Source: a virus
Direction: 5' to 3' (one strand)
Virus record (IMG/VR): IMGVR_UViG_3300037845_000146
Coordinates: 1 to 24,948 of that record
DNA length: 24,948 nt
Positions 5,004 through 22,168 of the stretch are shown in pieces. Below the pieces are notes generated by a model. The model did no database searches and had not been told where the DNA came from. It saw only the letters and a program-made list of their open reading frames with translations. Position 1 is the first letter of the stretch. Every line of letters begins with the position of its first letter. The position numbers and the translations under genes were made by a program.

Positions 5004-7097
5004 ATGAGCGAACAGGTGCGCGGCGCCGGCCAGCCGACTTGGCCGCTGTCGCCGTATCAGATCCAGGTGTCCTACGGCCAAAGCCAAGGCACATCCCAAG
5101 GCACGTCCCAAGCCACGTCCCAAGCCACGTCGAGCAACGGCATCGCGCGCGGTTCGGGTGCCGACTGGTTCGGCCCGCTCGACCCGATGCGACCGATCGC
5201 GCCGCCGGATGTCGCGGGGCGGCGGTTCGATTTCCCGCCCGGCTACAACCTCATCACCCGGCCGCGCGCCTACGAGAGCATCGGTTTTGCGGAGTTGCGC
5301 GGTTTTGCCGACGCCTACGATGTGCTTCGCCTGGTCATCGAGACGCGCAAGGACCAGATGGAGCGCCAGCGCTGGCGCATCCGGCCGCGCGACGCGAAAT
5401 CCAAGCGCCGCAGCGCCGCGATCGATCCCGATGTGACCGCGCGCATCGCCGGCATCGAGGCCTTTTTCCAAAAGCCCGACGGCATCACGCGCTGGAAGAC
5501 CTGGCTGCGCGCGTTGCTCGAGGACATGTTCGTCATCGACGCGGCGACGCTGTATTGCCAGCGCACGCGCTCAGGCCAGCTCTGCGGCCTGCAGCAGCTC
5601 GACGGCTCGACCATCAAGCGTGTGATCGACGATTGGGGCCGCACGCCGCAGCCGTTCGCCGCGGCCGACGGCACGACGATCTGTCCGCCGGCCTATCAGC
5701 AGGTGCTCAAAGGCCTGCCCGCGGTCAACTATTCGGCGCGCGACATCGTCTATCGGCCGCGCAACGTGCGCGCCCACCGGGTCTACGGCTATTCGCCGGT
5801 GCAGCAGGTGCTGATGACCGTCAACATCGCGCTGCGCCGCCAGCTCTGGCAGCTCGATTACTTTACCGAAGGCTCGATCCCCGACGCGCTGATCGGCGTG
5901 CCGCAGGGCTGGACGCCGGACCAGATCAAGCAGTTCCAGGATTATTGGGACACCGAATTCGCCGGCGACCTCGCCAAGCGCCGGCGGGCAAAATTCGTGC
6001 CCGGCGAGACCGCGGCCAAGGTCGTGCAGACCAAGGAGCCGCAGCACAAGGACGATTTCGACGAGTGGCTCGCCCGCATCATCTGCTTTGCCTTCTCGGT
6101 GCCGCCGCAATGGGCCACCAAGGCGATGAACCGCGCCACCGCGGAGAATCAATCGGCCCAGGCCGAGGAGGAGGGTCTCGAGCCGACCAAGGAGTGGGTC
6201 AAGGATTTGATCGACGAGATCGTGGCGGAGGAATTCGCCTCACCCGATCTCGAGCTGCATTGGCTCGACGAAGACGAAGGCGATCCCGAGACGGTGCTGG
6301 AAGGCCGGCTGAAAGTCGGCGCGCTCACACTCAACGAAATGCGCGACGCGCTCGGCCTCGACCCCTTCGACAACGCCGCCGCCGACCGTCCGATGGTGCT
6401 CACCGCTACGGGCTTTGTGCCGATCGAGGCCAATGCGGGCGGGGAGAGGGTGAGTGACGGAAATGCCGACGCGAACGGGCAAACGCCGAATTCGATGAAG
6501 TCGGTGCTTGGGAAAGCCCGACCGGACGATCCCGGGCATCCCGGTTGGCCTGCCGGCACTCCGGGAGGTCGCGGCGGTAAGTTTAGGCCAAAGGACGATG
6601 CGACGAACGAAGGCGAGAACGCAACGCCGACTGCGTCAGAGAGGTCGGGCGACGAAAAGATTCGTCTGGCGCAGGAAGACACTCCCGGCATCGGGTCCGA
6701 CGCCTTTCCTCCTTCTCAAGGTAGAGGGCATACTTGGATGCCGACGGCAGTGTACAATAAATACGAATGGAAAAAAGAGACAGAGGCCGTGTTCAAAAAT
6801 TGGACTTCCGGTCCGCTCGCCGATCCGAAAGTGAATCGTTGGTCGCCTGAACATGACGCGTATAATGATGCTGCCGAGGAGCTTCTTAAGAAGTATCTGA
6901 AGGAGCATGATATGGATGTCGATGTCTCAAAGGATGCTACGCTAAAAGCGACTCCTGAGCAGGCAAAGGAGATTGTGGAGGAGGTATTGACTACACGCGA
7001 GCCGCGTATCAGCGTCCTCCGGTTTAAAGTCAGAATGGAAATGCTTCGTTACTCTCGAAGGTATGGCGTGCTACGCGCATTCGGTGATGAGGAGTGA
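5004..7097 (+). CDS. phage portal protein with C-terminal GHH-type nuclease toxin domain
   Basis: The protein has 697 residues from the ATG at 5004 (AGGA about 6 bases upstream). Residues about 45-480 are a complete HK97-like portal: GYSPVQQ, IPDALIGVPQGW, NRATAENQ and a GALTLNEMRDALGLDP end. Portals form the dodecameric DNA gate of the capsid, and in known structures the C-terminal crown/barrel faces the capsid interior. After VPIEA comes a Gly/Asn-rich spacer, then the hinge HPGWPAGTPGGRGGKFRPK (about 512-530), then a charged, less GC-rich domain (about 575-697) starting GHTW. This domain aligns with the GHHW and GHHY domains at 10766 and 16167: G-H-x, then ..ET..VF....SGPLADP..N, H..Y..A, TPEQA. 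That layout fits GHH/AHH-type HNH-EndoVII nuclease toxins. Here the second His is Thr (GHT), so activity may be altered. The partner immunity gene starts one base after the stop. Confidence 0.88.
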   Translation: MSEQVRGAGQPTWPLSPYQIQVSYGQSQGTSQGTSQATSQATSSNGIARGSGADWFGPLDPMRPIAPPDVAGRRFDFPPGYNLITRPRAYESIGFAELRGFADAYDVLRLVIETRKDQMERQRWRIRPRDAKSKRRSAAIDPDVTARIAGIEAFFQKPDGITRWKTWLRALLEDMFVIDAATLYCQRTRSGQLCGLQQLDGSTIKRVIDDWGRTPQPFAAADGTTICPPAYQQVLKGLPAVNYSARDIVYRPRNVRAHRVYGYSPVQQVLMTVNIALRRQLWQLDYFTEGSIPDALIGVPQGWTPDQIKQFQDYWDTEFAGDLAKRRRAKFVPGETAAKVVQTKEPQHKDDFDEWLARIICFAFSVPPQWATKAMNRATAENQSAQAEEEGLEPTKEWVKDLIDEIVAEEFASPDLELHWLDEDEGDPETVLEGRLKVGALTLNEMRDALGLDPFDNAAADRPMVLTATGFVPIEANAGGERVSDGNADANGQTPNSMKSVLGKARPDDPGHPGWPAGTPGGRGGKFRPKDDATNEGENATPTASERSGDEKIRLAQEDTPGIGSDAFPPSQGRGHTWMPTAVYNKYEWKKETEAVFKNWTSGPLADPKVNRWSPEHDAYNDAAEELLKKYLKEHDMDVDVSKDATLKATPEQAKEIVEEVLTTREPRISVLRFKVRMEMLRYSRRYGVLRAFGDEE
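5082..5129 (+). repeat. four 12-bp tandem repeats inside the portal gene
   Basis: Four in-frame 12-mers of the form TCCCAAGSCACG encode SQGT SQGT SQAT SQAT (portal residues 27-42). They extend a disordered N-terminal arm. Such short repeats change copy number by slippage without breaking the frame. Confidence 0.75.
5557..6437 (+). repeat. portal anchor block, copy 1 (parent)
   Basis: This 881-bp part of the portal gene reappears without length change at 9639-10519, and its inner 312 bp (5791-6102) reappear at 11665-11976. All copies are direct. Differences between copies are mostly single third-position changes, far fewer than between the toxin domains attached to them. Confidence 0.9.
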
Positions 7098-7098
7098 T

Positions 7099-7524
7099 AT
7101 GACGCCCCCCGACGAACACCTCCACCATTGGGACCAAGAGTCTCGCACGTTCGAGCAATTGTATCCTCTTGTAGAGCAGGTTCTTGAACGGTGTGGGAGA
7201 CCCAATTATCTGCCACAGCAGCCCCGAGGCGATTTCACAGTCCACGGCGATTATCTGGGATATCCCGAAGTCGTTGTCTTTGTCTCCAACCTGGAAATGT
7301 TGCGGCCTCCTATTGTCGCGGCGCTCCAAAAGCTTATCAGAAACTTTCCAGGGTGGCAGATCACGATGACGATCGCCATGCGAGGTCACTACGACGATTG
7401 GCCCCACATGGGCCTTTATATTCGCCCGCACGAAATTATTGACGGACTGCAGCGACAATATTTTCCCAAGGAATTCCAGAGCCTTGAGTATGGAGGCGCC
7501 CGACAAGGTGGCGCCTACGACTAA
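7099..7524 (+). CDS. immunity protein of the GHH toxin, family member 1
   Basis: The 141-residue soluble protein has start ATG 7099, chosen because GAGGAG lies just upstream and the toxin stop is at 7095-7097; an upstream in-frame ATG at 7063 would overlap the toxin end. It is clearly homologous to the products at 11120-11545 and 16498-16929. Shared features are an F..L...VE..LE..GRP start, GDFTVHGDY.GYP.VVVF, PGWQI..T, DWP.MGLYIRPHEI.D.LQRQYFPK and a YGGARQG..YD end. Each member follows a GHH-type domain directly, so the pairing strongly suggests specific inhibition of that nuclease in the producing cell. No Pfam name is assigned with confidence. Confidence 0.75.
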   Translation: MTPPDEHLHHWDQESRTFEQLYPLVEQVLERCGRPNYLPQQPRGDFTVHGDYLGYPEVVVFVSNLEMLRPPIVAALQKLIRNFPGWQITMTIAMRGHYDDWPHMGLYIRPHEIIDGLQRQYFPKEFQSLEYGGARQGGAYD

Positions 7525-7732
7525 GTGCGGGTGACCGCAAGCTTTAACGAATGCCCCAGAGAAGCAGGAACCACGCATTCTGTAGGTTCGCTGCTCGGAC
7601 GAAACAGATATCGACAAGCGGGCAAAACCGGCAGGGCTAGCCGAAAATGACCCACGTCGGACATGAGTGGCGGCTAGCGCTGGAGGCTGGAAAAAATTAG
7701 AATGGTTGGCGGGCTAGACAGGGAGTTTGTGG

Positions 7733-8113
7733 GTGCCTTGGAAATACGACCCAGGGGAAAGACGACGAAAGCACAAGTGGCACAACGACTACGCCGGCTT
7801 TGAAGTTGAGGGGGGCGTCGAGGTCGGCAAGTGCCCAAAGACAATTACGCAGGAACTTGCGGAACAACTTCTTAACACGGGCGTAGGATGGAATAATCCT
7901 AGTATGCCGTCATCGGACTGCCCACGAAACATATATAATGTTCATGAAGGCGTTGTTTACAAGGCAGCTATCACTCTAGGCGGGGTGTCTTACCATGGCT
8001 ATCCGTGTAAGGGTCAGGTTCCGCGAGAAGTTGTAACTCAGTTGAAAGCGTTGGCCGCTCAGAAGAACTGCTCGAAAGAGTTTGAAGCATGGCTCAGACG
8101 GTACATTCAATAG
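7733..8113 (+). CDS. small protein of unknown function, upstream partner of an ImmA/IrrE peptidase
   Basis: The protein has 126 residues from the GTG at 7733, chosen because GGGAG (7721-7725) is 7 bases upstream; a TTG at 7727 is in frame but too close to that site. The N-terminus is strongly basic (WKYDPGERRRKHKWHNDY), and the C-terminus has HGYPCKGQVPREVV and FEAWLRRYIQ. No transmembrane helix. No family recognised. Its 3' end overlaps the start of the metallopeptidase gene at 8089 by 25 bases, indicating a two-gene unit, possibly toxin and peptidase-type antidote. The DNA is less GC-rich than the portal sequence on either side. Confidence 0.5.
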   Translation: MPWKYDPGERRRKHKWHNDYAGFEVEGGVEVGKCPKTITQELAEQLLNTGVGWNNPSMPSSDCPRNIYNVHEGVVYKAAITLGGVSYHGYPCKGQVPREVVTQLKALAAQKNCSKEFEAWLRRYIQ

Positions 8114-9513
8114 GCAGGCCGGATAGCCTTCAATTCGATCTGCAGTGGCTCGATATGCCCGGGAGCGAGCATCCTCTGGGGTACGGTAGCCTTGTTGTTT
8201 GGGTTGCTGGAGAACTAATATGGGGTGAAAGAAACGAAGAGGGCCAAATTGTCGGTGTCGAATGGTTCTGGGATGATTTGCTTGAGCGACTTGCTTTTTC
8301 TTGGCGATATCTTCTGCTTGAAGAAGCTTACCCCATGGGTCTTCTCCCCGTTGCGCCGCAACTACTCAGAAGCATTTTGCGCGACCGACAGATCGGCGCA
8401 TCGGAAGAAATGATAAATGCGGAGGACAACGCAGTTTTCGCTTTCGAAGAAATGCATGATCTGTCCCGTGCCGTAGAAGGAGGTGCGCTTCCTAAACTAT
8501 TCTTCTTGCGGGAAGGAAATTTAATGCTGATAGCTACGTCATCGGGTGTGAAACAGGTGGCTCTTTCCCCAGTAATGGAAGCATTAAATGAGCTAGGCGA
8601 TGAAATCGCTGAACGAATCAAAGCGAAATCCGATGGGCGGACAAAGACGATTTTAGAAGCATGGAAAGCAAAAGGAAGCATTTCTGATATTGATCAAGTA
8701 GAAATTTCCTCTGGACTTCCAAGGTCGACAATTAACGCGATCACGCAAAATGCAGAGTTCAAAACGTTTTGGGAGGTAACGGCATATGAGCCCAATGAGC
8801 TTATGGCCGCTGCGCGAATGGTCGGGCGCTTGGTTTCGGACGATGATACGCGAGCAATAATTAACAATATAAAGTCCGCTTCAAAGGTTAAGACCGCCAT
8901 ACTTGATGACCTTTCATCCGAAGCAGTCAAAGAATTAGAAAAATATCAGTCGAAAGTGCCGAACGAGCAAGGGCGGCTACTAGCGGAGTGGCTGCGTGGC
9001 AAGCCCGATATTATTGCTAAGGACGGCCTTGTCTATCCTGAAGTAATTTTGAACAGATGGAATGTGAAGCTGACAGAAATTGATTTGCGCTCGCAAAACA
9101 TAGATGCGCTATGCGCTTGGGGACCTAAACATGGCCCAACGGTTCTAATTAACAGAAACGGTCGCCTATCCCATTTCCCTACTGGAAAACGCTCATCCCT
9201 CGCTCATGAAATCTGCCATCTTTTGGTTGATCGAAAGGGTTCTCTTCCCGTTGCGGAGGTTTTTGGCGGCGAAGTCCCGAAGGTGCCCGAACAAAGGGCA
9301 AATGCGTTTGGCGCAGAGCTACTTTTAACGCGCGGCGCCGCCCTTATCGCGTATTTGAAGATACGAGATATAGAAGAGACACTAGAGGCAATTGCGAAAA
9401 ACTACAACGTGAGTTTCGAAGTTGCCGCATGGCAGTTGCTTAATTCTCGCGCAGAGCTCTCTGCCAGTCAGCGCCAACTACTACTTAAGCACACCTTCCG
9501 ATACGCAGCCTAA
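8089..9513 (+). CDS. ImmA/IrrE-family zinc metallopeptidase-like protein
   Basis: The protein has 474 residues. The C-terminal third holds the zinc motif HEICH (373-377) within RSSLAHEICHLLVDRKG, and a downstream Glu401 in EQRANAFGAELLL as the likely third ligand. This is the diagnostic ImmA/IrrE (COG2856) arrangement. Family members cleave or regulate repressors, or act with antitoxins in mobile elements. The N-terminal ~200 residues (W-rich, with GRTKTILEAWKAKG near 184) match no domain I can name; no helix-turn-helix is evident. The gene is visibly A+T-richer than the flanking portal copies and overlaps its upstream neighbour, so it looks like a separately acquired module inserted between portal cassettes 1 and 2. 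Confidence 0.75.
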   Translation: MAQTVHSIGRPDSLQFDLQWLDMPGSEHPLGYGSLVVWVAGELIWGERNEEGQIVGVEWFWDDLLERLAFSWRYLLLEEAYPMGLLPVAPQLLRSILRDRQIGASEEMINAEDNAVFAFEEMHDLSRAVEGGALPKLFFLREGNLMLIATSSGVKQVALSPVMEALNELGDEIAERIKAKSDGRTKTILEAWKAKGSISDIDQVEISSGLPRSTINAITQNAEFKTFWEVTAYEPNELMAAARMVGRLVSDDDTRAIINNIKSASKVKTAILDDLSSEAVKELEKYQSKVPNEQGRLLAEWLRGKPDIIAKDGLVYPEVILNRWNVKLTEIDLRSQNIDALCAWGPKHGPTVLINRNGRLSHFPTGKRSSLAHEICHLLVDRKGSLPVAEVFGGEVPKVPEQRANAFGAELLLTRGAALIAYLKIRDIEETLEAIAKNYNVSFEVAAWQLLNSRAELSASQRQLLLKHTFRYAA

Positions 9514-9638: not shown

Positions 9639-10519
9639 GCCAGCGCACCCGCTCGGGCCAGCTCTGCGCGCTGGCGCAACTCGACGGCGCGACCATCAAG
9701 CGCGTGATCGACGATTGGGGCCGCACGCCGCGGCCGTTTGCCACGGCCGACGGCACCACGATCTATCCGCCGGCCTATCAGCAGGTGCTCAAAGGCCTGC
9801 CCGCGGTCAACTATTCGGCGCGCGACATCGTCTACCGGCCGCGCAACGTGCGCGCCCACCGGGTCTACGGCTATTCGCCGGTGCAGCAGGTGCTGATGAC
9901 CGTCAACATCGCGCTGCGCCGCCAGCTCTGGCAGCTCGATTACTTTACCGAAGGCTCGATCCCCGACGCGCTGATCGGCGTGCCGCAGGGCTGGACGCCG
10001 GACCAGATCAAGCAGTTCCAGGATTATTGGGACACCGAATTCGCCGGCGACCTCGCCAAGCGCCGGCGGGCAAAATTCGTGCCCGGCGAGACCGCGGCCA
10101 AGGTCGTGCAGACCAAGGAGCCGCAGCACAAGGACGATTTCGACGAGTGGCTCGCCCGTATCATTTGCTTCGCCTTTTCGGTGCCGCCGCAATGGGCCAC
10201 CAAGGCGATGAACCGCGCCACTGCGGAGAATCAATCGGCCCAGGCCGAGGAGGAGGGTCTCGAGCCGACCAAGGAGTGGGTCAAGGATTTGATCGACGAG
10301 ATCGTGGCGGAAGAATTTTCCTCGCCCGATCTGGAGCTGCATTGGCTCGACGAGGACGAAGGCGATCCCGAGACGGTGCTGGAGGGCCGGCTGAAAGTCG
10401 GCGCGCTCACACTCAACGAGATGCGCGACGCGCTCGGCCTCGACCCCTTCGACAACGCCGCCGCCGACCGCCCGATGGTGCTCACGGCGACCGGCTTTGT
10501 GCCGATCGAGGCGAATGCG
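9639..10519 (+). repeat. portal anchor block, copy 2
   Basis: This is a direct repeat of 5557-6437 with no length change. It begins abruptly at portal codon 185, with no homology upstream. Confidence 0.9.
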
Positions 10520-11116
10520 CAGGGACAGGAAGCGGCCGCTGAAGGCCGGGGCGCGAACGGGTCGGACGCGAACGGGCAAACGCAGTCCGCGAAATTGGTA
10601 CTTCTAAAAGCTAGCGCCGACGATCCCGAGCATCCCGGCTGGCCGGCAGGCACCCCAGGAGGCCGAGGCGGTAAGTTTCGGCCTAAGGATAGCGAAGGCG
10701 GCGAGGCTGCGGGGAACTCTGCATCAGTCGAAGATGAACGTGTACGTTATCAGAAATATGGTGAGGGGCACCATTGGGTGGGGTGGGATGTGTACAAAAA
10801 TTTCAACCTAAAACCTGAAACAAGAAAAGTCTTCGAGGACGCTACATCCGGTGCGCTTGCGGACCCTTCCGTGAATTTCTTCAATCGTGAACATAGGATC
10901 TATGACCGTGCTGTCGAAAAAGCATTGAGGGACTATCTGGCGGAACATAAAATGACAGACGATCAAATGGAGCCGCAACAGGCCGAAGAATTCTATCGAA
11001 AAATTCGAGGATCGAACGATCCTATCATTGGGGGACTCAATAGAAAGATCATACGACAACGGCTAAGATATATACAATACTTTTACTTAGGCCGTGGCCG
11101 CGGAGAGGTGGAGTGA
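9704..11116 (+). CDS. 5'-truncated portal copy fused to a second GHH nuclease domain (displaced cassette)
   Basis: Portal sequence resumes in frame just after a TAG at 9632-9634 and is open from 9635, but contains no ATG; the first usable start is GTG 9704. The residual portal (from CQRTRSGQLC-equivalent residues on) runs intact to VPIEA. It is followed by a different spacer, the same hinge HPGWPAGTPGGRGGKFRPK, and a second toxin domain with GHHW at 10766-10777. That domain has the full GHH signature plus PETRKVFEDATSGALADP, H..Y..A and QQAEEFY. It lacks the portal N-terminal half, so it cannot assemble as a portal. It is best read as a stored cassette that becomes expressed if recombination joins it to the complete 5' half, or as a decaying remnant. 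Confidence 0.8.
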   Translation: MIDDWGRTPRPFATADGTTIYPPAYQQVLKGLPAVNYSARDIVYRPRNVRAHRVYGYSPVQQVLMTVNIALRRQLWQLDYFTEGSIPDALIGVPQGWTPDQIKQFQDYWDTEFAGDLAKRRRAKFVPGETAAKVVQTKEPQHKDDFDEWLARIICFAFSVPPQWATKAMNRATAENQSAQAEEEGLEPTKEWVKDLIDEIVAEEFSSPDLELHWLDEDEGDPETVLEGRLKVGALTLNEMRDALGLDPFDNAAADRPMVLTATGFVPIEANAQGQEAAAEGRGANGSDANGQTQSAKLVLLKASADDPEHPGWPAGTPGGRGGKFRPKDSEGGEAAGNSASVEDERVRYQKYGEGHHWVGWDVYKNFNLKPETRKVFEDATSGALADPSVNFFNREHRIYDRAVEKALRDYLAEHKMTDDQMEPQQAEEFYRKIRGSNDPIIGGLNRKIIRQRLRYIQYFYLGRGRGEVE

Positions 11117-11572: not shown

Positions 11573-11981
11573 CCGCGCACGACATTACCTGCCGGCCGCG
11601 CGACGTGCGCGCCTACTCCCTCCTTAGCCTTCGTCCGCGAGCGTGGGGAGGGAGGAATGGACGCATTCGCCGGTGCAGCAGGTGCTGATGACCGTCAACA
11701 TCGCGCTGCGCCGTCAGCTCTGGCAGCTCGATTACTTTACCGAAGGCTCGATCCCCGACGCGCTGATCGGCGTGCCGCAGGGCTGGACGCCGGACCAGAT
11801 CAAGCAGTTCCAGGATTATTGGGACACCGAGTTCGCCGGCGACCTCGCCAAGCGCCGGCGGGCAAAATTCGTGCCCGGCGAGACCGCGGCCAAGGTCGTG
11901 CGGACCAAGGAGCCGCAGCATAAGGACGATTTCGACGAGTGGCTCGCCCGCATCATCTGCTTCGCCTTTTCGGTGCAGTGA
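11573..11981 (+). pseudogene. third, eroded portal fragment
   Basis: 11665-11976 is a near-exact direct repeat of portal bases 5791-6102. Just upstream, 11573-11614 is a diverged match to the preceding portal segment (AHDITCRPRDVRAY against ARDIVYRPRNVRAH). Between them, about 50 bp with inverted CTCCCTCC / GGAGGGAG arms replace 13 bp of portal sequence and shift the frame. After 11976 homology stops abruptly within the FSVPPQW codons and a TGA follows at 11979-11981. The fragment therefore lacks both the portal start and the end of the portal core. Confidence 0.85.
11616..11654. repeat. inverted repeat within the eroded portal fragment
   Basis: CTCCCTCC (11616-11623) pairs with GGAGGGAG (11647-11654) around a 23-bp loop. 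It interrupts portal homology and looks like a small palindromic insertion of the intergenic-repeat kind. Confidence 0.5.
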
Positions 11982-12376
11982 CCAGCAATAACCGTGTGGA
12001 GCTCGCACAGCTCAAAGTAACACCCGATGGATTTAGCATTTCCCGTCCGCCAGGAAGAGATCCCTTAGATCCAAAGGGATTGAACGGCCCGATATCGCCG
12101 GACGAACAGCAAAACGTTGCGGACGCACTGACTCTCATATTAAATCAAGACTTCAGTATGGTGCATCCACACGTCTACGAGAACTATCAGCACCCTGTGA
12201 CGGGAGCTGTCCTGCCTTCTAGCACGGCCAGATATATAGCTTTCGACGTGTCGGGGCTCGGCGCCGCAAGAGGCGTAGGCAGACTCGTGATTGATGCCGG
12301 TACCGGAGCGATCTATTACACAAACAACCATTACCTCAGCTTTTATCCCCTTAAACTGAATCCGCGCGGCGAGTAG
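11978..12376 (+). CDS. barnase-like ribonuclease domain, possible active-site substitution
   Basis: 132 codons from GTG 11978, which overlaps the portal-fragment stop (GTGA) in another frame. The C-terminus reads ARYIAFDV (85-92), GRLVID (101-106) and AIYYTNNHYLSFYPL (110-124), the layout of microbial RNases of the barnase/N1 type, which cleave cytoplasmic RNA. Arg102 and His118 align with barnase Arg87 and His102. The position of the general base Glu73, 14 residues before that Arg, is Ala88 here. A barstar-like gene follows 4 bases downstream, which supports the assignment. The domain lies in a different frame from the portal fragment and has no hinge motif, so the joint looks illegitimate. 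The true start is uncertain. Confidence 0.6.
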   Translation: MTSNNRVELAQLKVTPDGFSISRPPGRDPLDPKGLNGPISPDEQQNVADALTLILNQDFSMVHPHVYENYQHPVTGAVLPSSTARYIAFDVSGLGAARGVGRLVIDAGTGAIYYTNNHYLSFYPLKLNPRGE

Positions 12377-12959: not shown

Positions 12960-13976
12960 ATGAACGACATGAACATCTTCGTGCCCATTACCAAGATCGA
13001 TGCGGCGCAGCGCCTGGTCTATGGCGTCGTTACCGCGGAGAAGCCGGATGTGTCCGGCGAGGTTTGCGACTATGCCTCGACCAAGCCGCATTATCAGAAG
13101 TGGTCGCGCAATTTCGCGTCCGTCACCGACGGCAAGAGCCTCGGCAACCTGCGCGCCATGCATTCCAACGTGGCGGCCGGCAAGCTCGTCCAGATCGCCT
13201 TCAACGACGAGGACAAGCGCATCGAGATCTGCGGCAAAGTGGTCGACGACGCCGAGTGGGAAAAAGTCGAGCAGGGCGTCTATACCGGCTTTTCGCAAGG
13301 CGGCCGCTATCTCAAGCGCTGGCCGGATCCGGACGAGCCGGCGCTGATGCGCTACACCGCCGAGCCCATGGAGGTGTCGCTGGTCGATCACCCGTGCCTG
13401 CCGGAAGCGACCTTTGCGGTGATCAAGGCCGATGGCTCGACCGAGCTGCGCAAGTTCAAGGACAATCCCGTGTCCGCCGCGCTGGCCGAGGCGCTCGCCA
13501 AGATCGGCGCGCGCCACTCCAAGGCCGACAAGGAACGCATCAAGCAAACCCACGATCTCCTGGTCGGGCTCGATCCGGATTGCTGCGCCGCGGCCGGGCC
13601 GGTCGCCGGCGCCAAGGTGGAGACGCGGCCGAAATTTTCGCCGCAGGCCGGCGAGGGAGCCGCCGAAGCTGCCGATGACAACGAGACGGCGAAGCTCGCA
13701 AAAGTCTTCGACCGCTCCTTGGCCAAGGCGATCCAGGCGGTTACGTCGCACGTTGACGAGTTGGCCGCGCGCGTGAAGAAAATCGAGGCGCAGCCGCTGC
13801 CGCTCGGCACCACCTCGGTGCGCGTCGCCGAGAAGAGCGAGGACTCGATCTTTCCCAAGCCGGAAGCGCTGCTCGATCAGCCGGGCGCGCTCGAAGCGCT
13901 CGCCGAGGCCGCGATCCGCAAGGCGCAATCGCAGCCGATGCGCGCCATTCCGGGTTTTCGTCCGCGCCGAGATTAA
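12960..13976 (+). CDS. prohead protease/scaffold (S78/XkdF-like)
   Basis: The protein has 338 residues; AAGGAG lies 6 bases before the ATG. The first ~160 residues are a phage head-maturation protease, with His68 in RAMHSN, Ser112 in TGFSQGG and Glu138 in PMEVSLVDHP matching the His-Ser-Glu triad order of the HK97-type family. It trims scaffold and capsid N-termini in the prohead. The remaining half is helical, charged and Ala/Lys/Glu-rich, and probably serves as fused scaffold. It follows the portal cassettes and precedes the capsid gene, the standard order. Sequence and composition look like unaltered backbone. No toxin hinge is present. Confidence 0.85.
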   Translation: MNDMNIFVPITKIDAAQRLVYGVVTAEKPDVSGEVCDYASTKPHYQKWSRNFASVTDGKSLGNLRAMHSNVAAGKLVQIAFNDEDKRIEICGKVVDDAEWEKVEQGVYTGFSQGGRYLKRWPDPDEPALMRYTAEPMEVSLVDHPCLPEATFAVIKADGSTELRKFKDNPVSAALAEALAKIGARHSKADKERIKQTHDLLVGLDPDCCAAAGPVAGAKVETRPKFSPQAGEGAAEAADDNETAKLAKVFDRSLAKAIQAVTSHVDELAARVKKIEAQPLPLGTTSVRVAEKSEDSIFPKPEALLDQPGALEALAEAAIRKAQSQPMRAIPGFRPRRD

Positions 13977-14145: not shown

Positions 14146-15717
14146 ATGTATCAGCCCAATCTGCCGCATCTCCTTGCCAAGTCGGCATTGCCGCACACCA
14201 TGCAGGATTACAGTGCCGCGCTGACCAATGCGGGCAGCTTCCTGCGCGAGATCGAGAAGGCGCACGCCAATCCGCTGCCCGGCGATCCGCTGGCGAAAGC
14301 CACGTTCTCGGAATCGAATTCGCCGACCTCGGGCCTGACCTATTACGACCTCGAGACCGGCGCCAAATTCGTCTATCCGATGCTCACGCCGCTGCGTAAC
14401 GAGATCCCGCGCGTCTCCGGCAAGGGCGGCATTCAGGCCAACTGGCGCGCGGTGACCGGCATCAACACCACGGGCTTGCGCATCGGCGTCTCCGGCGGCA
14501 ACCGCGGCGGCGTCAGCGCGGTGGCGACGCAGGATTACAGCGCCGCCTACAAGGGCATCGGCATCGAAACCTCGGTCGACTTCGAGGCGCAATATGCCGG
14601 CATGGGTTTTGACGACATCAAAGCGATCGGCGCCAAGATCGGGCTCGAAGCCTGCATGCTCGGCGAGGAGTTGTTGATCTTGGGCGGCAATACGTCGGTG
14701 CCGCTCGGCACCACGCCGACGCCGTCGCTGGCGCCGTCGACCTCCGGCGGCAGCCTCACCGCGGCGGCGTCGCCCTATAGCGTCATCTGCGTCGCGCTGT
14801 CGCTCGACGCCATCGTCAACGGCTCAGTTACCGGCGGCATCCAGGGCGCGATCACGCGCAGCAATGCCGACGGTTCGTCGGATGTGTTCGGCGGCGGCGC
14901 GGCCGGCAAATCGGCCAATGCCACGGCATCGATCTCGTCCGGCACCTCGGGCTCGATCGCAGCCAGCGTTGCAGCCGTCAGCGGCGCCATGGGCTATGCC
15001 TGGTTCTGGGGTGCTGCCGGCTCCGAAGTGCTCGGCGCCATCACCACCATCAATTCGCTGGTGATCACCGCCAACGCCGCCGGCACGCAGACTGCGGCCG
15101 CGCTCGGTTCGGACAATTCGACCAACGCGCTGGTGTTCGACGGCCTGCTCTACCAGGCGTTCAAGTCCGGCTCCAACGCCTATGTGCAATATCTCGCCAC
15201 CGGCACCGCCGGGACCGGCTCGACCCTGACCGGCGACGGCGCCGGCGGGGTGGTCGAGATCGACGCGGCGCTCAAGAACCGCTGGGACAATTACCGGCTC
15301 TCCCCAGACACCATGTGGGTCGGCTCGCAGGTCGCCAACGACCTGTCGAAGAAGATCCTCGCCGGCAACGCCAATGCGGCGCAGCGCTTCGTGTTCGATG
15401 CCGACCAGGGCGCGCTCGGCGGCGGCGTCATGGTGCGCACCTATCTCAACAAGTTCTCCATGGCCGGGCCAAAAGTGCTCGACATCCGCGTGCATCCCAA
15501 CATGCCGGCGGGTGCGTTGCTGATGACCTCGCGCACCTTGCCCTATCCGCTGTCGAACGTCGGCAATGTCATGCAGGTGCGCACCCGGCAGGACTACTAC
15601 CAGATCGAATGGCCGCCGCGGGCGCGCCGTTACGAGACCGGCGTCTATGCCGACGAGGTGCTGCAGCACTACTTCCCGCCGTCCATGGCGGTGATCGCGA
15701 ATATCGCGGCGGGGTAG
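14146..15717 (+). CDS. major capsid protein (HK97-like fold expected)
   Basis: The protein has 523 residues from ATG 14146 (MYQPNLPHLLAK); an in-frame ATG at 14047 lies inside the palindromic element and is rejected. The N-terminal part (about 60-180, TYYDLETGAKFVYPMLTPLR, GIETSVDFEAQYAG) and the C-terminal part (about 395-523, NRWDNYRLSPDTMWVG, NKFSMAGPKVLDIRV) look like the two halves of a phage capsid protein. Between them, about 181-325, is a Ser/Ala/Gly/Thr-rich insertion (SLTAAASPYS...) that may be a surface domain. It forms the icosahedral shell after protease processing. The last 119 codons are copied twice downstream (16991-17347 and 19557-19912). Confidence 0.85.
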   Translation: MYQPNLPHLLAKSALPHTMQDYSAALTNAGSFLREIEKAHANPLPGDPLAKATFSESNSPTSGLTYYDLETGAKFVYPMLTPLRNEIPRVSGKGGIQANWRAVTGINTTGLRIGVSGGNRGGVSAVATQDYSAAYKGIGIETSVDFEAQYAGMGFDDIKAIGAKIGLEACMLGEELLILGGNTSVPLGTTPTPSLAPSTSGGSLTAAASPYSVICVALSLDAIVNGSVTGGIQGAITRSNADGSSDVFGGGAAGKSANATASISSGTSGSIAASVAAVSGAMGYAWFWGAAGSEVLGAITTINSLVITANAAGTQTAAALGSDNSTNALVFDGLLYQAFKSGSNAYVQYLATGTAGTGSTLTGDGAGGVVEIDAALKNRWDNYRLSPDTMWVGSQVANDLSKKILAGNANAAQRFVFDADQGALGGGVMVRTYLNKFSMAGPKVLDIRVHPNMPAGALLMTSRTLPYPLSNVGNVMQVRTRQDYYQIEWPPRARRYETGVYADEVLQHYFPPSMAVIANIAAG

Positions 15718-15927
15718 TTCCGCGCCGCATTTGCTCCGTTATCCCGCGACTCGTCATGCGCGGGCGTGACCCGCGCATCGATACGGCCTCGCCGCCGCAT
15801 GGATTGCCGGGTCGCGCCCGGCAATGGCGCGCTCACGAGATCAGGCACATGAAACCACCGCTGCCGCGCACCTTGAGCGCCGTGCCGCGATTGCCGCACG
15901 TGCAGCTCGAGATCGTCAAGGCAATCC
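15361..15927 (+). repeat. capsid anchor block, copy 1 (parent)
   Basis: The 567-bp block covers the capsid 3' end, a 131-bp intergenic region and the first 26 codons of the carrier. It recurs at 16991-17558 and 19557-20120. The coding parts align without gaps; the intergenic part differs by 1-2 bases in length. All copies are direct. Homology stops at the same carrier codons each time. Confidence 0.9.
15718..15848. repeat. capsid-carrier intergenic region with two palindromes
   Basis: ATGCGCGGG / CCCGCGCAT and ATTGCCGGG / CCCGGCAAT form two 9-bp hairpins. The region is repeated at 17348-17479 and 19913-20041 with drift that partly destroys the stems. Its retention between capsid and carrier may attenuate transcription into the toxin gene. 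Confidence 0.6.
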
Positions 15928-16469
15928 TTACGCTCGTTGCGCCGTCTGTCGACCAGTCTGGTGGATCCTTAGAGACCACGGCACCAGATGACAATTACGC
16001 GTTGGCAAGAAGAATCTTCCGCACCTCCCTACGGGAGGAATTTTATAAGGCCGGCTTCCGCTCGGACCAGCCGCGCTGGCGTAGGGGCAGCGGACGACGT
16101 AGCGGACGTTGGTCAGGCGGAGCCGGCGGTGTCATTACGGATCAAGCCTATAGGCGGCTCCGGGGCGGTCATCACTACGTACCCAGAGAAATCTTCGATG
16201 ATCTATTTAAGAAAAATCAGCTTAGACCCGAAACTCGAAAGGTTTTCGATGAAGCTGTCACTGGGCCACTCCCGAAAGGCCTTCATAAGAACGACAGACC
16301 ACACAGAGAATATACGAAGGCAGTTTTAGGCCTGTGGCATCAATTCTTGGGAAGACTCGGAATTCGGTCCGAAGACATGACACCCGACCAAGCGCGAAAA
16401 TTCATTCACGAGGTTCTTCACTCAGACGATCCAAGAATAAGCCTTTATAATGGTAGATTTCGGCGTTAA
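15849..16469 (+). CDS. capsid-linked carrier with GHH-type nuclease toxin domain
   Basis: The protein has 206 residues. The start ATG 15849 is fixed by the shared beginning MKPPLPRTLSAVPRL of three carriers. Residues 1-26 are the conserved cap, followed by a short variable stretch, a DQPRWRRGSGRRSGRW hinge (about 73-88) and the toxin domain from GHHYVP (107-112). The domain has PETRKVFDEAVTGPLP, HREYTKAV and MTPDQARKFIHEV, clearly homologous to the portal-borne domains at 5004-7097 and 9704-11116. GHH plus H..Y..AV resembles GHH/AHH-type HNH-EndoVII toxins, which cut DNA. The shared domain on two unrelated carriers shows that toxin modules move between anchors. The frame is intact, so this is the active-position cassette behind the capsid gene. 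Confidence 0.75.
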   Translation: MKPPLPRTLSAVPRLPHVQLEIVKAILTLVAPSVDQSGGSLETTAPDDNYALARRIFRTSLREEFYKAGFRSDQPRWRRGSGRRSGRWSGGAGGVITDQAYRRLRGGHHYVPREIFDDLFKKNQLRPETRKVFDEAVTGPLPKGLHKNDRPHREYTKAVLGLWHQFLGRLGIRSEDMTPDQARKFIHEVLHSDDPRISLYNGRFRR

Positions 16470-16497
16470 AATAGATTCAGAAGGGTTAGGTGCAGTT

Positions 16498-16929
16498 GTG
16501 AGAAAAAAAATACAAAGCAAGGAAGATGAGGATCGTCGCTATGACGAGCAATTCAATACCTTCCTGCTGCTTCGAGACCGAATTGAGAGTCTTTTGGAGC
16601 AATACGGCCGAGCCGACTCTTTGGCGGGGCTGGGCGACTTTTCCGCGCATTATCATTTCGTTCAATCGGATCAAGTAAAGGTATCTGTCGCCAATCTCGA
16701 CCTATTTCAGCCATTTATTGTCTATCAGCTGCAGGATATCGTGAAGGAATTCCCGGGGTGGGAAATCGTATATACCGTAGCCCTCGACGATCACCTCAAG
16801 GATTGGCCCGACATGGGCCTATATATTCGCGGTGATGAAATCATCGACACATTGCAGCGGCAGTATTTTCCCAAAAAATATCAAAGCATAGAATATGCTG
16901 GGAGCAAGCGGGGGACGGAACCAGACTGA
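16498..16929 (+). CDS. immunity protein of the GHH toxin, family member 3
   Basis: 143 residues from GTG 16498, preferred over ATG 16450 because the resulting length matches the 141-residue homologues and AGG lies upstream; the ATG would give 159 residues and overlap the toxin by 20 bases. It shares ESLLEQYGR, PGWEIVYTVA, DWPDMGLYIRGDEIIDTLQRQYFPK and the final YAGSKRG...D with the products at 7099 and 11120. It is the most divergent of the three, as is its toxin. It presumably neutralises the GHHY domain encoded just upstream. Confidence 0.72.
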   Translation: MRKKIQSKEDEDRRYDEQFNTFLLLRDRIESLLEQYGRADSLAGLGDFSAHYHFVQSDQVKVSVANLDLFQPFIVYQLQDIVKEFPGWEIVYTVALDDHLKDWPDMGLYIRGDEIIDTLQRQYFPKKYQSIEYAGSKRGTEPD

Positions 16930-16990
16930 GTGATTTCGCGCGTAGTGACTGGCTTCCCTTTCCGGTGTCGATGATGCGCGGCTGAAACGC

Positions 16991-17347
16991 GCCGGCAACG
17001 CCAATGCGGCGCAGCGCTTTGTGTTCGACGCCGACCAGGGCGCGCTCGGCGGTGGCGTCATGGTGCGCACCTATCTCAACAAGTTCTCCATGGCAGGCCC
17101 GAAAGTGCTGGACATCCGCGTGTATCCCAACATGCCGGCGGGTGCGCTGCTGATGACCTCGCGCACCTTGCCCTATCCGCTGTCGAACGTCGGCAACGTC
17201 ATGCAGGTGCGTACCCGGCAGGACTACTACCAGATCGAATGGCCGCCGCGGGCGCGCCGTTACGAGACCGGTGTCTACGCCGACGAGGTGCTGCAGCACT
17301 ATTTCCCGCCGTCCATGGCGGTGATCGCCAATATCGCGGCGGGGTAA
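16991..17347 (+). pseudogene. capsid 3' fragment, copy 2
   Basis: 119 codons identical or nearly identical to the capsid C-terminus, beginning at GCCGGCAACG with no capsid sequence before it and ending at the native TAA. A GTG (17021) could start a 108-residue peptide, but there is no independent expression signal. It serves as the homology anchor of the next cassette rather than as a gene. Confidence 0.85.
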
Positions 17348-19548: not shown

Positions 19549-19556
19549 CGTCTAGT

Positions 19557-19912
19557 CCGGCAACGCCAAAGCGGCGCAGCGCTTCGTGTTCGATGCCGAC
19601 CAGGGCGCGCTCGGCGGCGGCGTCATGGTGCGCAGCTATCTCAACAAGTTCTCCATGGCCGGCCCGAAAGTGCTCGACATCCGCGTGCATCCCAACATGC
19701 CCGCGGGCGCGCTGTTGATGACCTCGCGCACCTTGCCGTATCCGCTGTCGAACGTCGGCAACGTCATGCAGGTGCGCACCCGGCAGGACTACTACCAGAT
19801 CGAATGGCCGCCGCGGGCGCGCCGTTACGAGACCGGCGTCTATGCCGACGAGGTGCTGCAGCACTATTTCCCGCCGTCCATGGCGGTGATCGCCAATATC
19901 GCGGCGGGATAA
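19557..19912 (+). pseudogene. capsid 3' fragment, copy 3
   Basis: It begins abruptly at CCGGCAACGCC nine bases after the stop of the previous immunity gene and runs to the native capsid stop. It differs from the parent at only a few positions (for example Thr to Ser in MVRSYLNKF). It acts as the anchor of the third capsid-linked cassette. Confidence 0.85.
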
Positions 19913-20218: not shown

Positions 20219-20220
20219 AC

Positions 20221-20888: not shown

Positions 20889-21254
20889 GTGACCAGAACC
20901 GTAAAGGCTGCTCCAGTGAATTCTCTGTTATTCATCTCGGATCCTGACGGAGGAGACCCACCATTTCCGGTTTGGGGGGTAGAAATCCTCGCAACCGATT
21001 CGTGCGTTTCGATAGGGTGCTATCCGTCGATGGATGGGGAGACGGCAGTGACGCTCGGTCCGGCACGAGAGGTTGATCCCGGTGGCGCGCCGGTATTCGA
21101 CGCTATTTTGAAAACGCCGAGCCGTGCCCTCGTCATTTCAACGGTTGATGACGAAACGCTTCTGCGAGAGGAGGTTTCCGGAACGACAACGCGTGTCCGA
21201 GCTTGGACCAACAAGCCATCAATGCCGGATGAAGTGATTATTGGATACGATTAA
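20889..21254 (+). CDS. immunity-like protein, paralogue A
   Basis: 121 residues from GTG 20889, directly behind the CxxC/DHxPP toxin, with GAGGTAACT upstream. It is predicted all-beta and soluble: SLLFISDPDGGDPPFP, SIGCYPSMDGETAVTLGPA, TTRVRAWTNKPSMPDEVIIG. It is homologous along its length to the product at 21355-21723. Position gives the immunity assignment; no Pfam family is recognised. The regular alternation of hydrophobic residues would suit an inhibitor that covers the nuclease surface, which is inference only. Confidence 0.6.
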   Translation: MTRTVKAAPVNSLLFISDPDGGDPPFPVWGVEILATDSCVSIGCYPSMDGETAVTLGPAREVDPGGAPVFDAILKTPSRALVISTVDDETLLREEVSGTTTRVRAWTNKPSMPDEVIIGYD

Positions 21255-21355
21255 ATGCGATTGATCCAAACGGCAAAACGCAAAGATTGTTGCCGAAGTG
21301 CTTGAGTTGCAGTCAGCGGCAGGGTGGGATCTTGCGAAATCAAGGAGGGCAATAA
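21254..21355 (+). pseudogene. 33-codon vestige of a second CxxC/DHxPP toxin
   Basis: Translating from 21254 gives a run containing QRLLPKCLSCSQRQGG and ending at TAA 21353-21355, aligned without gaps to the last residues of the toxin at 20221-20886 (QRLYPHCIWCSRLQGG). By direct count 14 of 33 positions are identical, including both Cys and the QGG. The vestige starts exactly at the stop of paralogue A and ends overlapping the ATG of paralogue B. This is all that remains of a displaced toxin gene. Confidence 0.75.
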
Positions 21356-21723
21356 TGGAATCAAAGTCAGTAACTCTCCCGGTCCCAAACGCTGTGTTCT
21401 TCATTACAGGCTCTAATACGAATGACATACCTGAAATCCACCGCGGCTCCATTATTTGGTCTAAACCTGCTTGCATCGCTGTCGGCTCTACTCCCGACTG
21501 TGACGGCCAGACTCGAATTGTAATCGGGTTATCGCCGCAAGTTGATCTTGGCAACCAACCGGCGTTTGACGGCCGATTGGAGACGCCTGATCGTATCGTG
21601 AGTGTAGATATTGTTCCCGGCACCAAGGTCCTGCAACAAAAGGTACCAGGCGCCGATACGCGCGTCAGAATCTGGGTGAATCATCCAACACAGCCGGAAG
21701 ACGTAACGATCGCGCTCGGATAG
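21355..21723 (+). CDS. immunity-like protein, paralogue B (orphan)
   Basis: 122 residues from ATG 21355, preferred over the upstream in-frame 21298 start because AAGGAGGG lies 5-6 bases before it and the length matches paralogue A (121). Shared positions with A include AVFFITG/SLLFISD, CIAVGSTPDCDGQTRIVIG / CVSIGCYPSMDGETAVTLG and TRVRIWVNHPTQPEDVTIA / TRVRAWTNKPSMPDEVIIG. Its own toxin is reduced to the vestige at 21254-21355, so it is an orphan immunity gene with an intact frame and a strong ribosome binding site. Confidence 0.62.
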   Translation: MESKSVTLPVPNAVFFITGSNTNDIPEIHRGSIIWSKPACIAVGSTPDCDGQTRIVIGLSPQVDLGNQPAFDGRLETPDRIVSVDIVPGTKVLQQKVPGADTRVRIWVNHPTQPEDVTIALG

Positions 21724-21725
21724 CA

Positions 21726-21797
21726 AGTTTAGATTTGGCGGAGCGTTACCGTTTAAGCCTTGGTGTCTTGAAAATATTCAACGTGCTGAAGCCATGA
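21726..21797 (+). pseudogene. vestige of a third HNH-toxin C-terminus
   Basis: The frame ends AERYRLSLGVLKIFNVLKP-stop. Against the HNH toxin tail EERRRVGIDALTRFGVLKL, 8 of 19 positions are identical by direct count. The TGA overlaps the ATG at 21794 as in the intact pair. Confidence 0.6.
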
Positions 21798-22168
21798 GGA
21801 AAGTGGATGACTTTAGTACTCTCAACGTGGCCGACCTGGTCGAGCTGTTTGCTGCTCTCGGAGTCCTGAACGACCATGGGTTAATGAGGGGCCATAAAGC
21901 GGACGTCAACCGGGCCTTTTATCGCATGTCTGCAATTGCAGACCAGCTCAAAAGTCGGAAAGGTGACCGGCGCCGTGCGCTTTTGGCGCTCTATGACCAC
22001 CGGAATGCGGCGGTACGACTGGCGGCAGCGAAAGCTACATTGGCCGTTGCGCCGATCGAGGCGCGGTGAATGATCGAGAGCATCGCCGAGGGACGGCATA
22101 TGCATTACTCTGGCGACGCTGGCATGTGCCTTCTGATGCTCGACAGCGGCCGCTCTGTGCCTGAATAG
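21794..22168 (+). pseudogene. DUF2019-like immunity gene with an in-frame TGA, copy 4
   Basis: The frame starts MRKVDDFSTLNVADLVELFA and follows the DUF2019-like pattern to LAVAPIEAR, then meets TGA at 22067-22069. The same frame continues directly with MIESIAEG...SGDAGMCLLMLDSG to TAG 22166-22168. The total length, counting the TGA, equals the 123-124 codons of the other copies. The other copies have an Arg codon at this spot (AGG in copy 1), so a CGA to TGA change is the simplest explanation. The truncated 91-residue product lacks the last helices. Confidence 0.7.

What the first reader, a model, noticed from the sequence alone, without database searches (positions are those of the whole stretch)
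5004..22168. Phage head genes used as homology anchors for an array of toxin/immunity cassettes
Seen: the portal and capsid 3' ends each occur three times as direct, mostly gap-free copies, and each copy leads into a different toxin domain and partner gene. Known: Rhs and CdiA loci carry displaced CT/immunity cassettes behind partial copies of the parent gene. Inferred: incoming DNA recombines at the shared 3' end, installs a new toxin behind the intact head gene and pushes the old one downstream, so the array is a record of successive acquisitions and a possible switching device. I know of no described case built on portal and capsid genes.
Basis: partly seen in the sequence, partly recalled or inferred. 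Interest (0 to 1): 0.92.

Follow-up and report, generated by a model that had tools for sequence, protein, structure and literature searches.

The report
Phage-head toxin arrays that reshuffle
Soil phages, and gene-transfer-type particles encoded by related bacteria, carry swappable toxin genes behind their head genes; older ones are pushed downstream into arrays and can be brought back by recombination, which suggests that DNA-delivering particles may also be weapons.

Summary
The core of the finding holds. The window is part of a tailed phage whose portal gene reads in frame into a toxin-like domain; partial portal and capsid copies downstream lead into further toxin/immunity cassettes. Two other contigs each confirm part of the layout. 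Corrections: portal copy 3 is an internal piece, capsid-linked toxins are separate genes, and three of the six portal- and capsid-linked toxins are one family.

Relatives test the mechanism. The window's displaced second cassette lies directly behind the intact portal in L005 (1,156 bp, 100%), the crossover mapped to 323 identical bp. L013 and L017 are identical over 17.7 kb except for a 3.7-kb block: L013 has a copy of a distal cassette behind its portal and keeps the old one. L015 adds one cassette to L014/L016. In-frame extensions follow 38 of 40 intact portals, but only 24 of 62 displaced copies.

New: chromosomal clusters of gene-transfer-agent type in the host family carry the same linker, toxin and immunity families behind their own, distant portal, mostly with displaced portal pieces.

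It works like Rhs/CDI orphan arrays and lies near MuF polymorphic toxins, without a MuF domain. Toxicity and delivery in the head are inferred.

The parts
1204..1683 (+). small gene upstream of the terminase; member of the partner-gene family that accompanies REase-like toxins in gene-transfer-agent-type clusters (predicted immunity)
   Evidence: tblastn 32-38% identity to genes behind such toxins in L279, L281, L282, L332
1847..3382 (+). terminase large subunit
   Evidence: PF17289, PF04466, PF03237; phrog_979
3379..4341 (+). terminase-side cassette: N-terminal segment + linker PRVPAGNRDGGQW + Ntox44-like end
   Evidence: D5 repeat; linker and N-terminal pattern; Ntox44 weak, below cut-off
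4355..4651 (+). predicted partner (immunity) gene of the terminase-side cassette
   Evidence: position; homologue with 98 aligned codons in L009; not scanned against family libraries
5004..7097 (+). intact portal (core 5100-6419) read in frame through linker DDPGHPGWPAGTPGGRGGKFRPKD into toxin family A (about 6705-7094)
   Evidence: PF04860 1e-15; extension and linker; family alignment A2; model pLDDT 86
7063..7524 (+). partner (predicted immunity) gene A1
   Evidence: 57% and 43% identical to partners A2 and A3
8089..9513 (+). M78 / IrrE-like domain protein in the block absent from L005
   Evidence: PF06114 1e-12; block absent from L005
9518..10501 (+). displaced portal piece P2 (residues 120-440); crossover with P1 inside 9836-10158
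10502..11116 (+). linker plus second member of toxin family A, in frame with P2 but without the portal start
   Evidence: extension 204 aa; 100% identical to cassette 1 of L005
11120..11545 (+). partner (predicted immunity) gene A2
11658..11975 (+). displaced portal piece P3, internal (residues 229-334)
11939..12376 (+). barnase-like ribonuclease toxin, out of frame with the portal piece before it
   Evidence: PF00545 3e-6; portal-linker-barnase reading frame in L012
12381..12689 (+). barstar-like immunity gene
   Evidence: PF01337 2e-9; dN/dS 0.14-0.29 in three comparisons
12960..13976 (+). head maturation protease
   Evidence: PHROGs head maturation protease families; PF14550 just below cut-off
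14047..15717 (+). major capsid protein (assigned by gene order and relatives)
   Evidence: phrog_13692, function unknown; partial homologues annotated major head/capsid protein in Alicyclobacillus and Arthrobacter phages
15849..16469 (+). capsid cassette 1: N-terminal segment + toxin family A, intact gene
16450..16929 (+). partner (predicted immunity) gene A3
16970..17347 (+). displaced capsid 3' end C2
17480..18352 (+). capsid cassette 2: N-terminal segment + HPGWP linker, in-frame stop at 17939-17941, then toxin-like part from 17948
   Evidence: same stop in L084
18349..19548 (+). three DUF2019-type genes (18349-18720, 18751-19122, 19123-19548), predicted immunity
   Evidence: PF09450 2e-37 for the first; mutual identity 47-63%
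19556..19912 (+). displaced capsid 3' end C3
19976..20886 (+). capsid cassette 3: N-terminal segment (19976-20218) and linker + toxin part (20017-20886) in different frames
   Evidence: no indel here between window and L084 up to 20664
20889..21723 (+). two related partner (predicted immunity) genes, 20889-21254 and 21298-21723
   Evidence: 35% identical to each other; homologues beside the same toxin type in Shinella and in gene-transfer-agent-type clusters
21794..22069 (+). fourth DUF2019-like gene, broken: similarity runs on to 22165 beyond the stop
22897..24299 (+). head-tail adaptor (22897-23826) and tail-completion gp10-like gene (23823-24299); the latter is a further anchor in relatives
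   Evidence: PHROGs; gp10 3'-half pieces downstream of gp10 in relatives

Best explanation
This is a head-anchored polymorphic toxin array of a phage of Xanthobacteraceae and relatives. SHOWN BY SEQUENCE: the portal gene runs in frame through a conserved linker into a variable C-terminal domain, followed by a partner gene. Partial copies of portal and capsid, each with its own cassette, trail the intact gene in the same direction. Recombination inside shared portal sequence changes which cassette sits behind the intact portal. A displaced cassette can be copied back to the first position while the old copy and the former first cassette stay in the array. INFERRED: only the first cassette is translated as a full portal fusion; the fused toxin is built into the portal ring or released inside the head, enters the next cell with the DNA and harms it unless it holds the matching immunity gene; archived immunity genes are kept because they protect lysogens against siblings that carry older toxins.
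For: Turnover: identical or near-identical cassettes at position 1 in one contig and displaced in another in three sets. L013/L017: zero mismatches over 10,926 bp and over 6,785 bp, and 100% over 11,337 bp of their downstream parts L197/L181, which overlap those in part; in the sequence held they differ only by a 3.7-kb block. Junctions fall in L013 10775-10950 and 14569-14702, and in window 5754-6076 / 9836-10158 for L005.

Polarity: of 107 copies that follow another copy in their locus (duplicate loci included), 106 start after residue 100 and none holds the portal 5' end. In-frame extension of at least 100 aa in 38 of 40 distinct intact portals against 24 of 62 distinct displaced copies, Fisher p 2e-9. 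192 linker-bearing reading frames on the sense strand, none on the other (duplicate loci included).

Toxin nature: barnase, RNAse_A_bac, Ntox37 and Tox-REase-5 above Pfam cut-offs, in 4 of 20 stretches scanned.

Generality: partial portal copies in 13 of 19 distinct closed intervals of the clade against 3 of 46 in relatives below 79% identity; capsid 13 of 33 against 0 of 39.

Head link: the same linker-toxin fusion on a distant portal in gene-transfer-agent-type clusters.
Against: No virion or toxicity data. Capsid- and terminase-side toxins are not fused to a structural protein. Linker-toxin-partner genes also stand alone next to housekeeping genes in Shinella and Methylobacterium, so the cassettes are not specific to heads. 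24 of 62 displaced copies keep an open frame and might be expressed from internal starts. An extension of 100 aa need not be a toxin: three of the 38 are only 103-121 aa long before a stop (L155, L040, L107) and two run off their contig. Six of 19 closed portal intervals have no extra copy, two of them (L023, L028) no cassette. Four contigs hold portals that keep the 5' part and break later. Near-identical contigs share the first cassette in 6 of 9 contig pairs. L013 holds a 2,950-bp repeat with 2 mismatches, which short reads should not resolve; no reads were seen. 12 of 20 scanned stretches gave no toxin-family match and no MuF.
Confidence: 0.82

Rival explanations
1. The arrays are passive scars. 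Repeated illegitimate recombination among mosaic phages leaves duplicated head-gene pieces with toxin-immunity genes as hitch-hikers; there is no switching function and no toxin delivery by the head.
For: 27 of 62 distinct displaced portal copies stop short of residue 430 and 13 change frame inside. In the window, cassettes 2 and 3 behind the capsid are broken. Standalone cassettes occur in chromosomes or large replicons.
Against: First-position fusions are open in 38 of 40 distinct intact portals, many with a recognisable linker. L013/L017 show a precise, recent re-installation. dN/dS of most partner and toxin genes that could be compared is about 0.1-0.3, though this also reflects time spent at the first position. 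The arrangement exists on two distant portals.
Confidence: 0.2
2. The cassettes are bacterial toxin-immunity modules of an unknown export route that phages and gene-transfer-agent clusters merely picked up; they protect or arm the lysogen (abortive infection, superinfection exclusion) and are not delivered by particles.
For: Same linker, toxin and partner families next to dnaJ and penicillin-binding-protein genes in Shinella, and the same linker with an RNAse_A_bac toxin next to glutamine synthetase in Methylobacterium. Capsid- and terminase-side cassettes are free genes with their own N-terminal segment.
Against: At the portal the toxin is a C-terminal part of a virion protein, in two distant portals. 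In this phage the cassettes cluster at head genes (portal, capsid, gp10, terminase) and in sense.
Confidence: 0.2
3. The near-identical contigs that differ in cassette order are chimeric assemblies through repeated portal sequence.
For: Repeats share 134-323 bp identical stretches at the junctions. No reads are available.
Against: Window array repeated by L055 (100%, 9,556 bp) and L084 (99.6%, 7,765 bp). L015 differs in the same way from both L014 and L016. Portal pieces and cassettes also lie inside megabase contigs of bacterial genomes (G066, G026, G106).
Confidence: 0.08

Closest known systems
MuF polymorphic toxins of temperate phages (Jamet 2017, PMC5576092, passages read; Zhang 2012, PMC3482391, passages read)
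   Same: toxin domain at the C-terminus of a head/packaging-module protein, immunity genes, proposed loading into the head; barnase among the listed toxin types
   Different: no MuF domain in the window; carrier is the portal itself (MuF lies at that position behind the more distant portal L044); trailing arrays of partial carrier copies; in the held text of Jamet 2017 'orphan' occurs 0 times and 'cassette' once, for tails
Portal-effector fusions in polyvalent proteins and ADP-ribose systems (PMC5512222; PMC9503650; passages read)
   Same: enzymatic domains fused to portal or MuF, thought to be injected
   Different: the passages seen do not describe immunity partners or tandem displaced copies on the portal
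Orphan CDI and Rhs toxin/immunity modules (PMC4927057, passages read; Koskiniemi 2014, PMC3967940, abstract read)
   Same: displaced 3' ends with toxin/immunity pairs behind the parent gene; recombination with the parent brings an orphan into use; duplication before recombination keeps old immunity, as L013 would
   Different: carrier is a phage structural protein, not a secreted toxin; several anchors per genome
T6SS immunity-gene arrays of Vibrio cholerae (Kirchberger 2017, PMC5361080, abstract and start of introduction read)
   Same: successive displacement of effectors with retention of immunity genes
   Different: T6SS; the abstract mentions no fragments of a carrier gene
Polymorphic toxin cassettes of Mycobacterium abscessus prophages (PMC9934374, passages read)
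   Same: toxin-immunity cassettes exchanged between prophages
   Different: thought to be exported by type VII secretion, near att sites, not on head genes
RcGTA-type gene transfer agents (recalled; marker PF13547 tested)
   Same: clusters of this type in the host family carry the same linker-toxin-partner modules behind the portal, and in two genomes behind the capsid
   Different: distant portal (BLASTP E 0.16) and a capsid of Pfam PF05065, which the window capsid does not match; PF13547 not found in the window record, which may be a fragment. No report of toxins in such clusters is known to me; none was searched for

Membership tests
MuF polymorphic toxins | MuF domain (PF04233/PF06152 or relatives) as carrier | tested here: not met
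   portal fusion 4749-7094 matches only Phage_portal in Pfam at E up to 1; the MuF3 and MuF4 profiles of Jamet 2017 were not at hand
MuF polymorphic toxins | variable C-terminal toxin domain of known toxin families | tested here: met
   barnase in the window; RNAse_A_bac, Ntox37, Tox-REase-5 in relatives; family A itself has no family or fold match
MuF polymorphic toxins | located in the portal/terminase packaging module | tested here: met
MuF polymorphic toxins | temperate phage | tested here: inconclusive
   no lysogeny gene identified in the window; the relative in G002 lies on a contig with alanyl-tRNA synthetase and polyphosphate kinase genes, with an S24/HTH repressor-like gene 2.6 kb before its terminase
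Rhs/CDI-type orphan module arrays | displaced toxin/immunity modules headed by partial copies of the parent gene | tested here: met
Rhs/CDI-type orphan module arrays | carrier is Rhs or CdiA | tested here: not met
   carrier is the portal (PF04860)
Rhs/CDI-type orphan module arrays | recombination puts an orphan behind the intact parent | tested here: met
   L013 against L017, by sequence comparison only
Gene transfer agent cluster (for the clusters in G053, G066, G087, G026, G008, not the window) | GTA_TIM gene PF13547 in the same cluster | tested here: met
   same contig and strand, about 11-18 kb from the portal. Found on another contig in G168 and G040; not found in G154, G106, G123, G139
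Gene transfer agent cluster | particles transfer host DNA | not testable with these tools
   no experiment

The most novel reading that the evidence does not exclude
DNA-delivering heads of both phages and gene transfer agents in Xanthobacteraceae are armed with exchangeable portal-linked toxins drawn from one shared pool of linker-toxin-immunity cassettes. A particle gives its DNA safely only to cells that hold the matching immunity gene, so gene transfer and lysogeny are kin-selective. The array is a recombinational archive in which an old toxin can be re-armed without loss of immunity.
Probability: 0.45. Interest if true: 0.96.

Novelty: new variant of a known kind. Interest (0 to 1): 0.86.

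Why it matters
It shows orphan-array behaviour, known from Rhs, CDI and T6SS loci, on virion structural genes, with near-clonal contigs that catch the exchange. If delivery by the head holds, virions and gene transfer agents are weapons as well as DNA carriers. That would bear on an open question about gene transfer agents: how their benefit is kept among kin. The pairs L013/L017 and L014/L015 make switching directly testable with reads, and the chromosomal clusters are candidates for tests in culture.

Tried and rejected
Considered and rejected: (1) single-contig assembly artefact, excluded for the window by L055 and L084. (2) A plain chronological record: L013 carries cassette A twice, so order is not age. 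(3) Identifying toxin family A: Pfam, NCBIfam and a Foldseek search of the model against PDB gave nothing (best E 2.4); a GHH motif suggests a nuclease (recalled, weak). (4) Toxin turnover rate against divergence: only 5 of 583 aligned portal pairs were 97% or more identical in the 5' part, so no rate is claimed. (5) Horizontal import of cassettes between phages: cassettes of about 95-98.6% identity between contigs whose head genes are about 88-95% identical (best 40 of 56 rows seen, some rows being array pieces of one contig) hint at it but do not prove it. (6) HPGWP-type linker in named phages and plasmids: no match; the PRVPAG type matched two plasmid-collection records and was not searched in phages. 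(7) I first called the second portal 'unrelated'; it is the same Pfam family without a significant pairwise match.

Errors of mine: the query 'p2CT' and one row of the seed were read in a wrong frame. The family alignment A2 used correct frames, and hits of p2CT were not used. Counts include duplicate loci of the same contig; searches use distinct sequences, distinct contigs.

Literature: 10 of 10 searches used. In their listings, and in the passages read, I saw no portal- or capsid-anchored toxin array.
Full report
WHAT IS THERE. The window is a 24,948-base virus record with the head-gene order of a tailed phage: terminase large subunit, portal, head maturation protease, capsid, head-tail adaptor, tail-completion protein. 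The capsid has only a function-unknown PHROG match; it is named by order and by partial homologues annotated as major head or capsid protein. Between these genes lie toxin-like genes and partner genes. The portal gene (5004-7097) does not stop at the end of the portal: it reads in frame through DDPGHPGWPAGTPGGRGGKFRPKD into a further domain. Behind it lie a partner gene, an M78-domain gene, portal piece P2 (residues 120-440) with its own linker, toxin and partner, then portal piece P3 (229-334), a barnase and a barstar. Behind the capsid lie a cassette gene and partner; capsid 3' end C2 with a cassette and three DUF2019-type genes; and capsid 3' end C3 with a cassette, two partner genes and a broken DUF2019-like gene. 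A separate cassette follows the terminase. Portal-linked toxins and free cassette genes share two linker types (HPGWPAGTPxGxGGxFRPKD and PRVPAGNPDGGQW).

IS IT REAL. L055 is 100% identical to window 5950-15505 and L084 99.6% identical to 12900-20664, so the portal and the capsid array are each seen in a second contig. In the clade (portal core at least 79% identical), 13 of 19 distinct closed portal-to-protease intervals hold at least one partial portal copy; among more distant relatives 3 of 46 do. For the capsid the numbers are 13 of 33 (capsid at least 84% identical) and 0 of 39. Pieces of the 3' half of gp10 lie downstream of gp10 in several relatives. All 192 reading frames found with a linker lie on the sense strand of the head genes, none on the other (duplicate loci included).

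POLARITY AND DECAY. Of 107 portal copies that follow another copy in their locus (duplicate loci included) none holds the 5' end and 106 start after residue 100. On distinct sequences, 38 of 40 intact portals carry an in-frame extension of 100 aa or more, against 24 of 62 displaced copies (Fisher p 2e-9); 27 of the 62 are cut before residue 430, eight of them at residue 335. Not every extension need be a toxin: three are only 103-121 aa before a stop and two run off the contig. Against this picture, four contigs hold a first copy that keeps its 5' part and is broken later (L057, L078, L160, L176); L057 joins portal residue 335 to a free-cassette N-terminal segment. In the window the barnase is out of frame with the portal piece before it, while L012 has a portal-linker-barnase reading frame that ends in the same residues. 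Its barstar, like most toxin and partner genes that could be compared, shows dN/dS of about 0.1-0.3; for many pairs dS is saturated and gives no ratio, and the terminase-side cassette and its partner are higher, 0.34 and 0.55.

THE ARRAYS TURN OVER. The cassette behind the intact portal of L005 is identical over 1,156 bp to the window's second, displaced cassette, and L005 769-6501 matches window 9639-15371 without gaps at 99.5%. L005 is identical to P1 over 755 bp (L005 534-1288) and then follows P2; all three agree over 323 bp (window 5754-6076 and 9836-10158), where the exchange must lie. Upstream, L005 differs from the window at 127-533, so the two are not clones, and this pair does not tell insertion from deletion. 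L015 equals L014 and L016 apart from one additional cassette at the first position (shared blocks 98.5-99.5% identical).

THE CLEAREST CASE is L013 against L017: no mismatch in L013 25-10950, none in L013 14569-21353, and 100% over 11,337 bp of the downstream parts (L197, L181), which overlap those in part. Between these, L013 has an extra 3.7-kb block equal to L017's third cassette and the sequence behind it, installed behind the intact portal. Leaving smaller pieces aside, L013 has cassette order A-B-C-A where L017 has B-C-A; the two A copies differ at 2 of 2,950 positions, both near the start. The junctions lie in L013 10775-10950 and 14569-14702. This is the duplication-then-recombination route proposed for CDI and Rhs orphans, which gives a new toxin without loss of the old immunity gene (PMC4927057, passages read). 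In all, 6 of 9 contig pairs at least 98% identical at the intact portal share the first cassette and 3 do not (two events; window/L005 falls below that threshold). The exact repeat in L013 is longer than short reads should resolve; whether long reads were used is unknown to me, and a chimeric join is not excluded.

WHAT THE CARGO IS. 181 C-terminal regions behind linkers reduce to 111 at 90% identity and 28 similarity groups, 13 of them single sequences; some groups are short and may not be toxins. Of 20 stretches given to Pfam (18 behind linkers or portals of the clade and its linker-bearing relatives, two behind the distant portals of L079 and L044), four match toxin or RNase families above the curated cut-offs (barnase PF00545; RNAse_A_bac PF18431; Ntox37; Tox-REase-5), three match toxin families below them (Ntox44, CdiA_C, CdiA_C_tRNase), one has only a weak DUF218 match, eleven have none, and the stretch behind the distant portal of L044 is a MuF domain, PF04233. 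Tox-REase-5 and the two CdiA_C types come from relatives with portals about 57% identical. Family A, the window's own portal toxin, has no family match and no PDB fold match.

BEYOND THE PHAGE. The same linker and cargo occur in three other settings. (a) Single genes beside housekeeping genes in Shinella and Methylobacterium replicons. (b) Bacterial genomes with the window-type portal: 6 of 391 in the family of G001, the MAG titled Xanthobacteraceae that holds L155. In G002 it sits on a contig with chromosomal genes, with a repressor-like gene 2.6 kb before the terminase. (c) Clusters of the gene-transfer-agent type. Their portal belongs to the same Pfam family as the window's (PF04860, 302 bits) but shows no significant pairwise match to it (BLASTP E 0.16). 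It occurs in 163 of 296 family genomes (E at most 1e-80). The seven portals at least 83% identical to that of G066 all have frames of 579-726 aa, measured stop to stop; most others listed have about 390-450, with longer exceptions, and the list was cut. The seven (G066, G087, G106, G123, G139, G154, G168) were fetched and all show the linker; G026, whose portal has a frame change, shows it too.

IN THESE CLUSTERS the array repeats. L279 has portal-REase-like toxin-partner, portal piece-linker-REase-like toxin-partner, portal piece, capsid. L321 has portal-toxin of the window's capsid cassette 3 type-partner, portal piece-linker-family A-like toxin-partner, portal piece-linker-RNase A-like frame (names REase-like and RNase A-like by motif, not by a family match here). 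L332 has four partner-type genes in a row before a portal piece. Portal pieces were found in 7 of these 8 loci, not in the short L280. GTA_TIM lies on the same contig and strand about 11-18 kb from the portal in G053, G066, G087, G026 and G008, on another contig than the match in G168 and G040, and was not found in G154, G106, G123 and G139; G106 may hold a remnant. Six fetched portals of 62-67% identity (L324-L329; G115, G021 and G138 with GTA_TIM on the same contig) show no pieces and no linker, but L324 and L325 end soon after the portal. In G053 and G008 the portal is not fused, yet cassettes lie between portal and capsid and, with DUF2019-type genes, behind the capsid. PF13547 was not found in the window record.

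HOW IT MOST LIKELY WORKS. Shown by sequence: in-frame portal-linker-toxin fusion, partner genes, trailing partial copies, exchange by recombination in shared portal sequence, re-installation of an archived cassette, and the same design on two distant portals. Inferred: assembly of the fusion into the particle, entry into the recipient, toxicity, protection by the partner genes, and benefit from archived immunity. That two different DNA-packaging heads carry it at the same gene makes head delivery more likely than either alone, but the standalone genes show that the cassettes can live without a head.

NOVELTY. Toxins on phage head proteins (MuF) and effector fusions to portals are known, and so are orphan arrays of Rhs, CDI and T6SS loci. 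I saw no array anchored on portal or capsid genes in the listings of ten literature searches or in the passages read. For gene transfer agents no search was made, and the statement that toxins have not been described there rests on recall.

Noticed in passing
   Followed up: partly
L283 (G053) and L331 (G008): Unfused portals of such clusters, with linker toxins and partners between portal and capsid and a toxin-like gene plus DUF2019-type genes behind the capsid.
   Followed up: partly
L267 9899-10978 (Shinella), L268 10016-10820 (Methylobacterium): Standalone linker-toxin genes with a following small gene, next to housekeeping genes: cassettes without a head gene, export route unknown.
   Followed up: partly
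portal residues 334-337 in L006, L014, L017, L018, L057, L090, L092, L127 and window P3: Displaced portal copies often end near residue 335, joined to different cargo: a recurrent second junction with no explanation.
   Followed up: no
window 8089-9513: M78/IrrE-like protein inside the block that distinguishes the window from L005; possibly a separate defence or toxin-antitoxin element.
   Followed up: no
L013 4430-4531 and 78-2854; L017 same region: Upstream of the terminase, a repeat of the terminase 5' end (residues 2-35) and further direct repeats: perhaps another array on the 5' side.
   Followed up: no
L266 17490-18629 (G002): Gene behind the portal with OMP beta-barrel and Peptidase_S74 chaperone matches near the contig end.
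   Followed up: no
G186 contigs C257, C80, C184, C227: Nine matches to the terminase-side cassette in one genome, five of them on C257 within about 23 kb: another array, carrier unknown.
   Followed up: no
window 22202-22780, minus strand: DUF4262 gene (PF14081, 3e-20) in opposite orientation between the capsid array and the adaptor.
   Followed up: no
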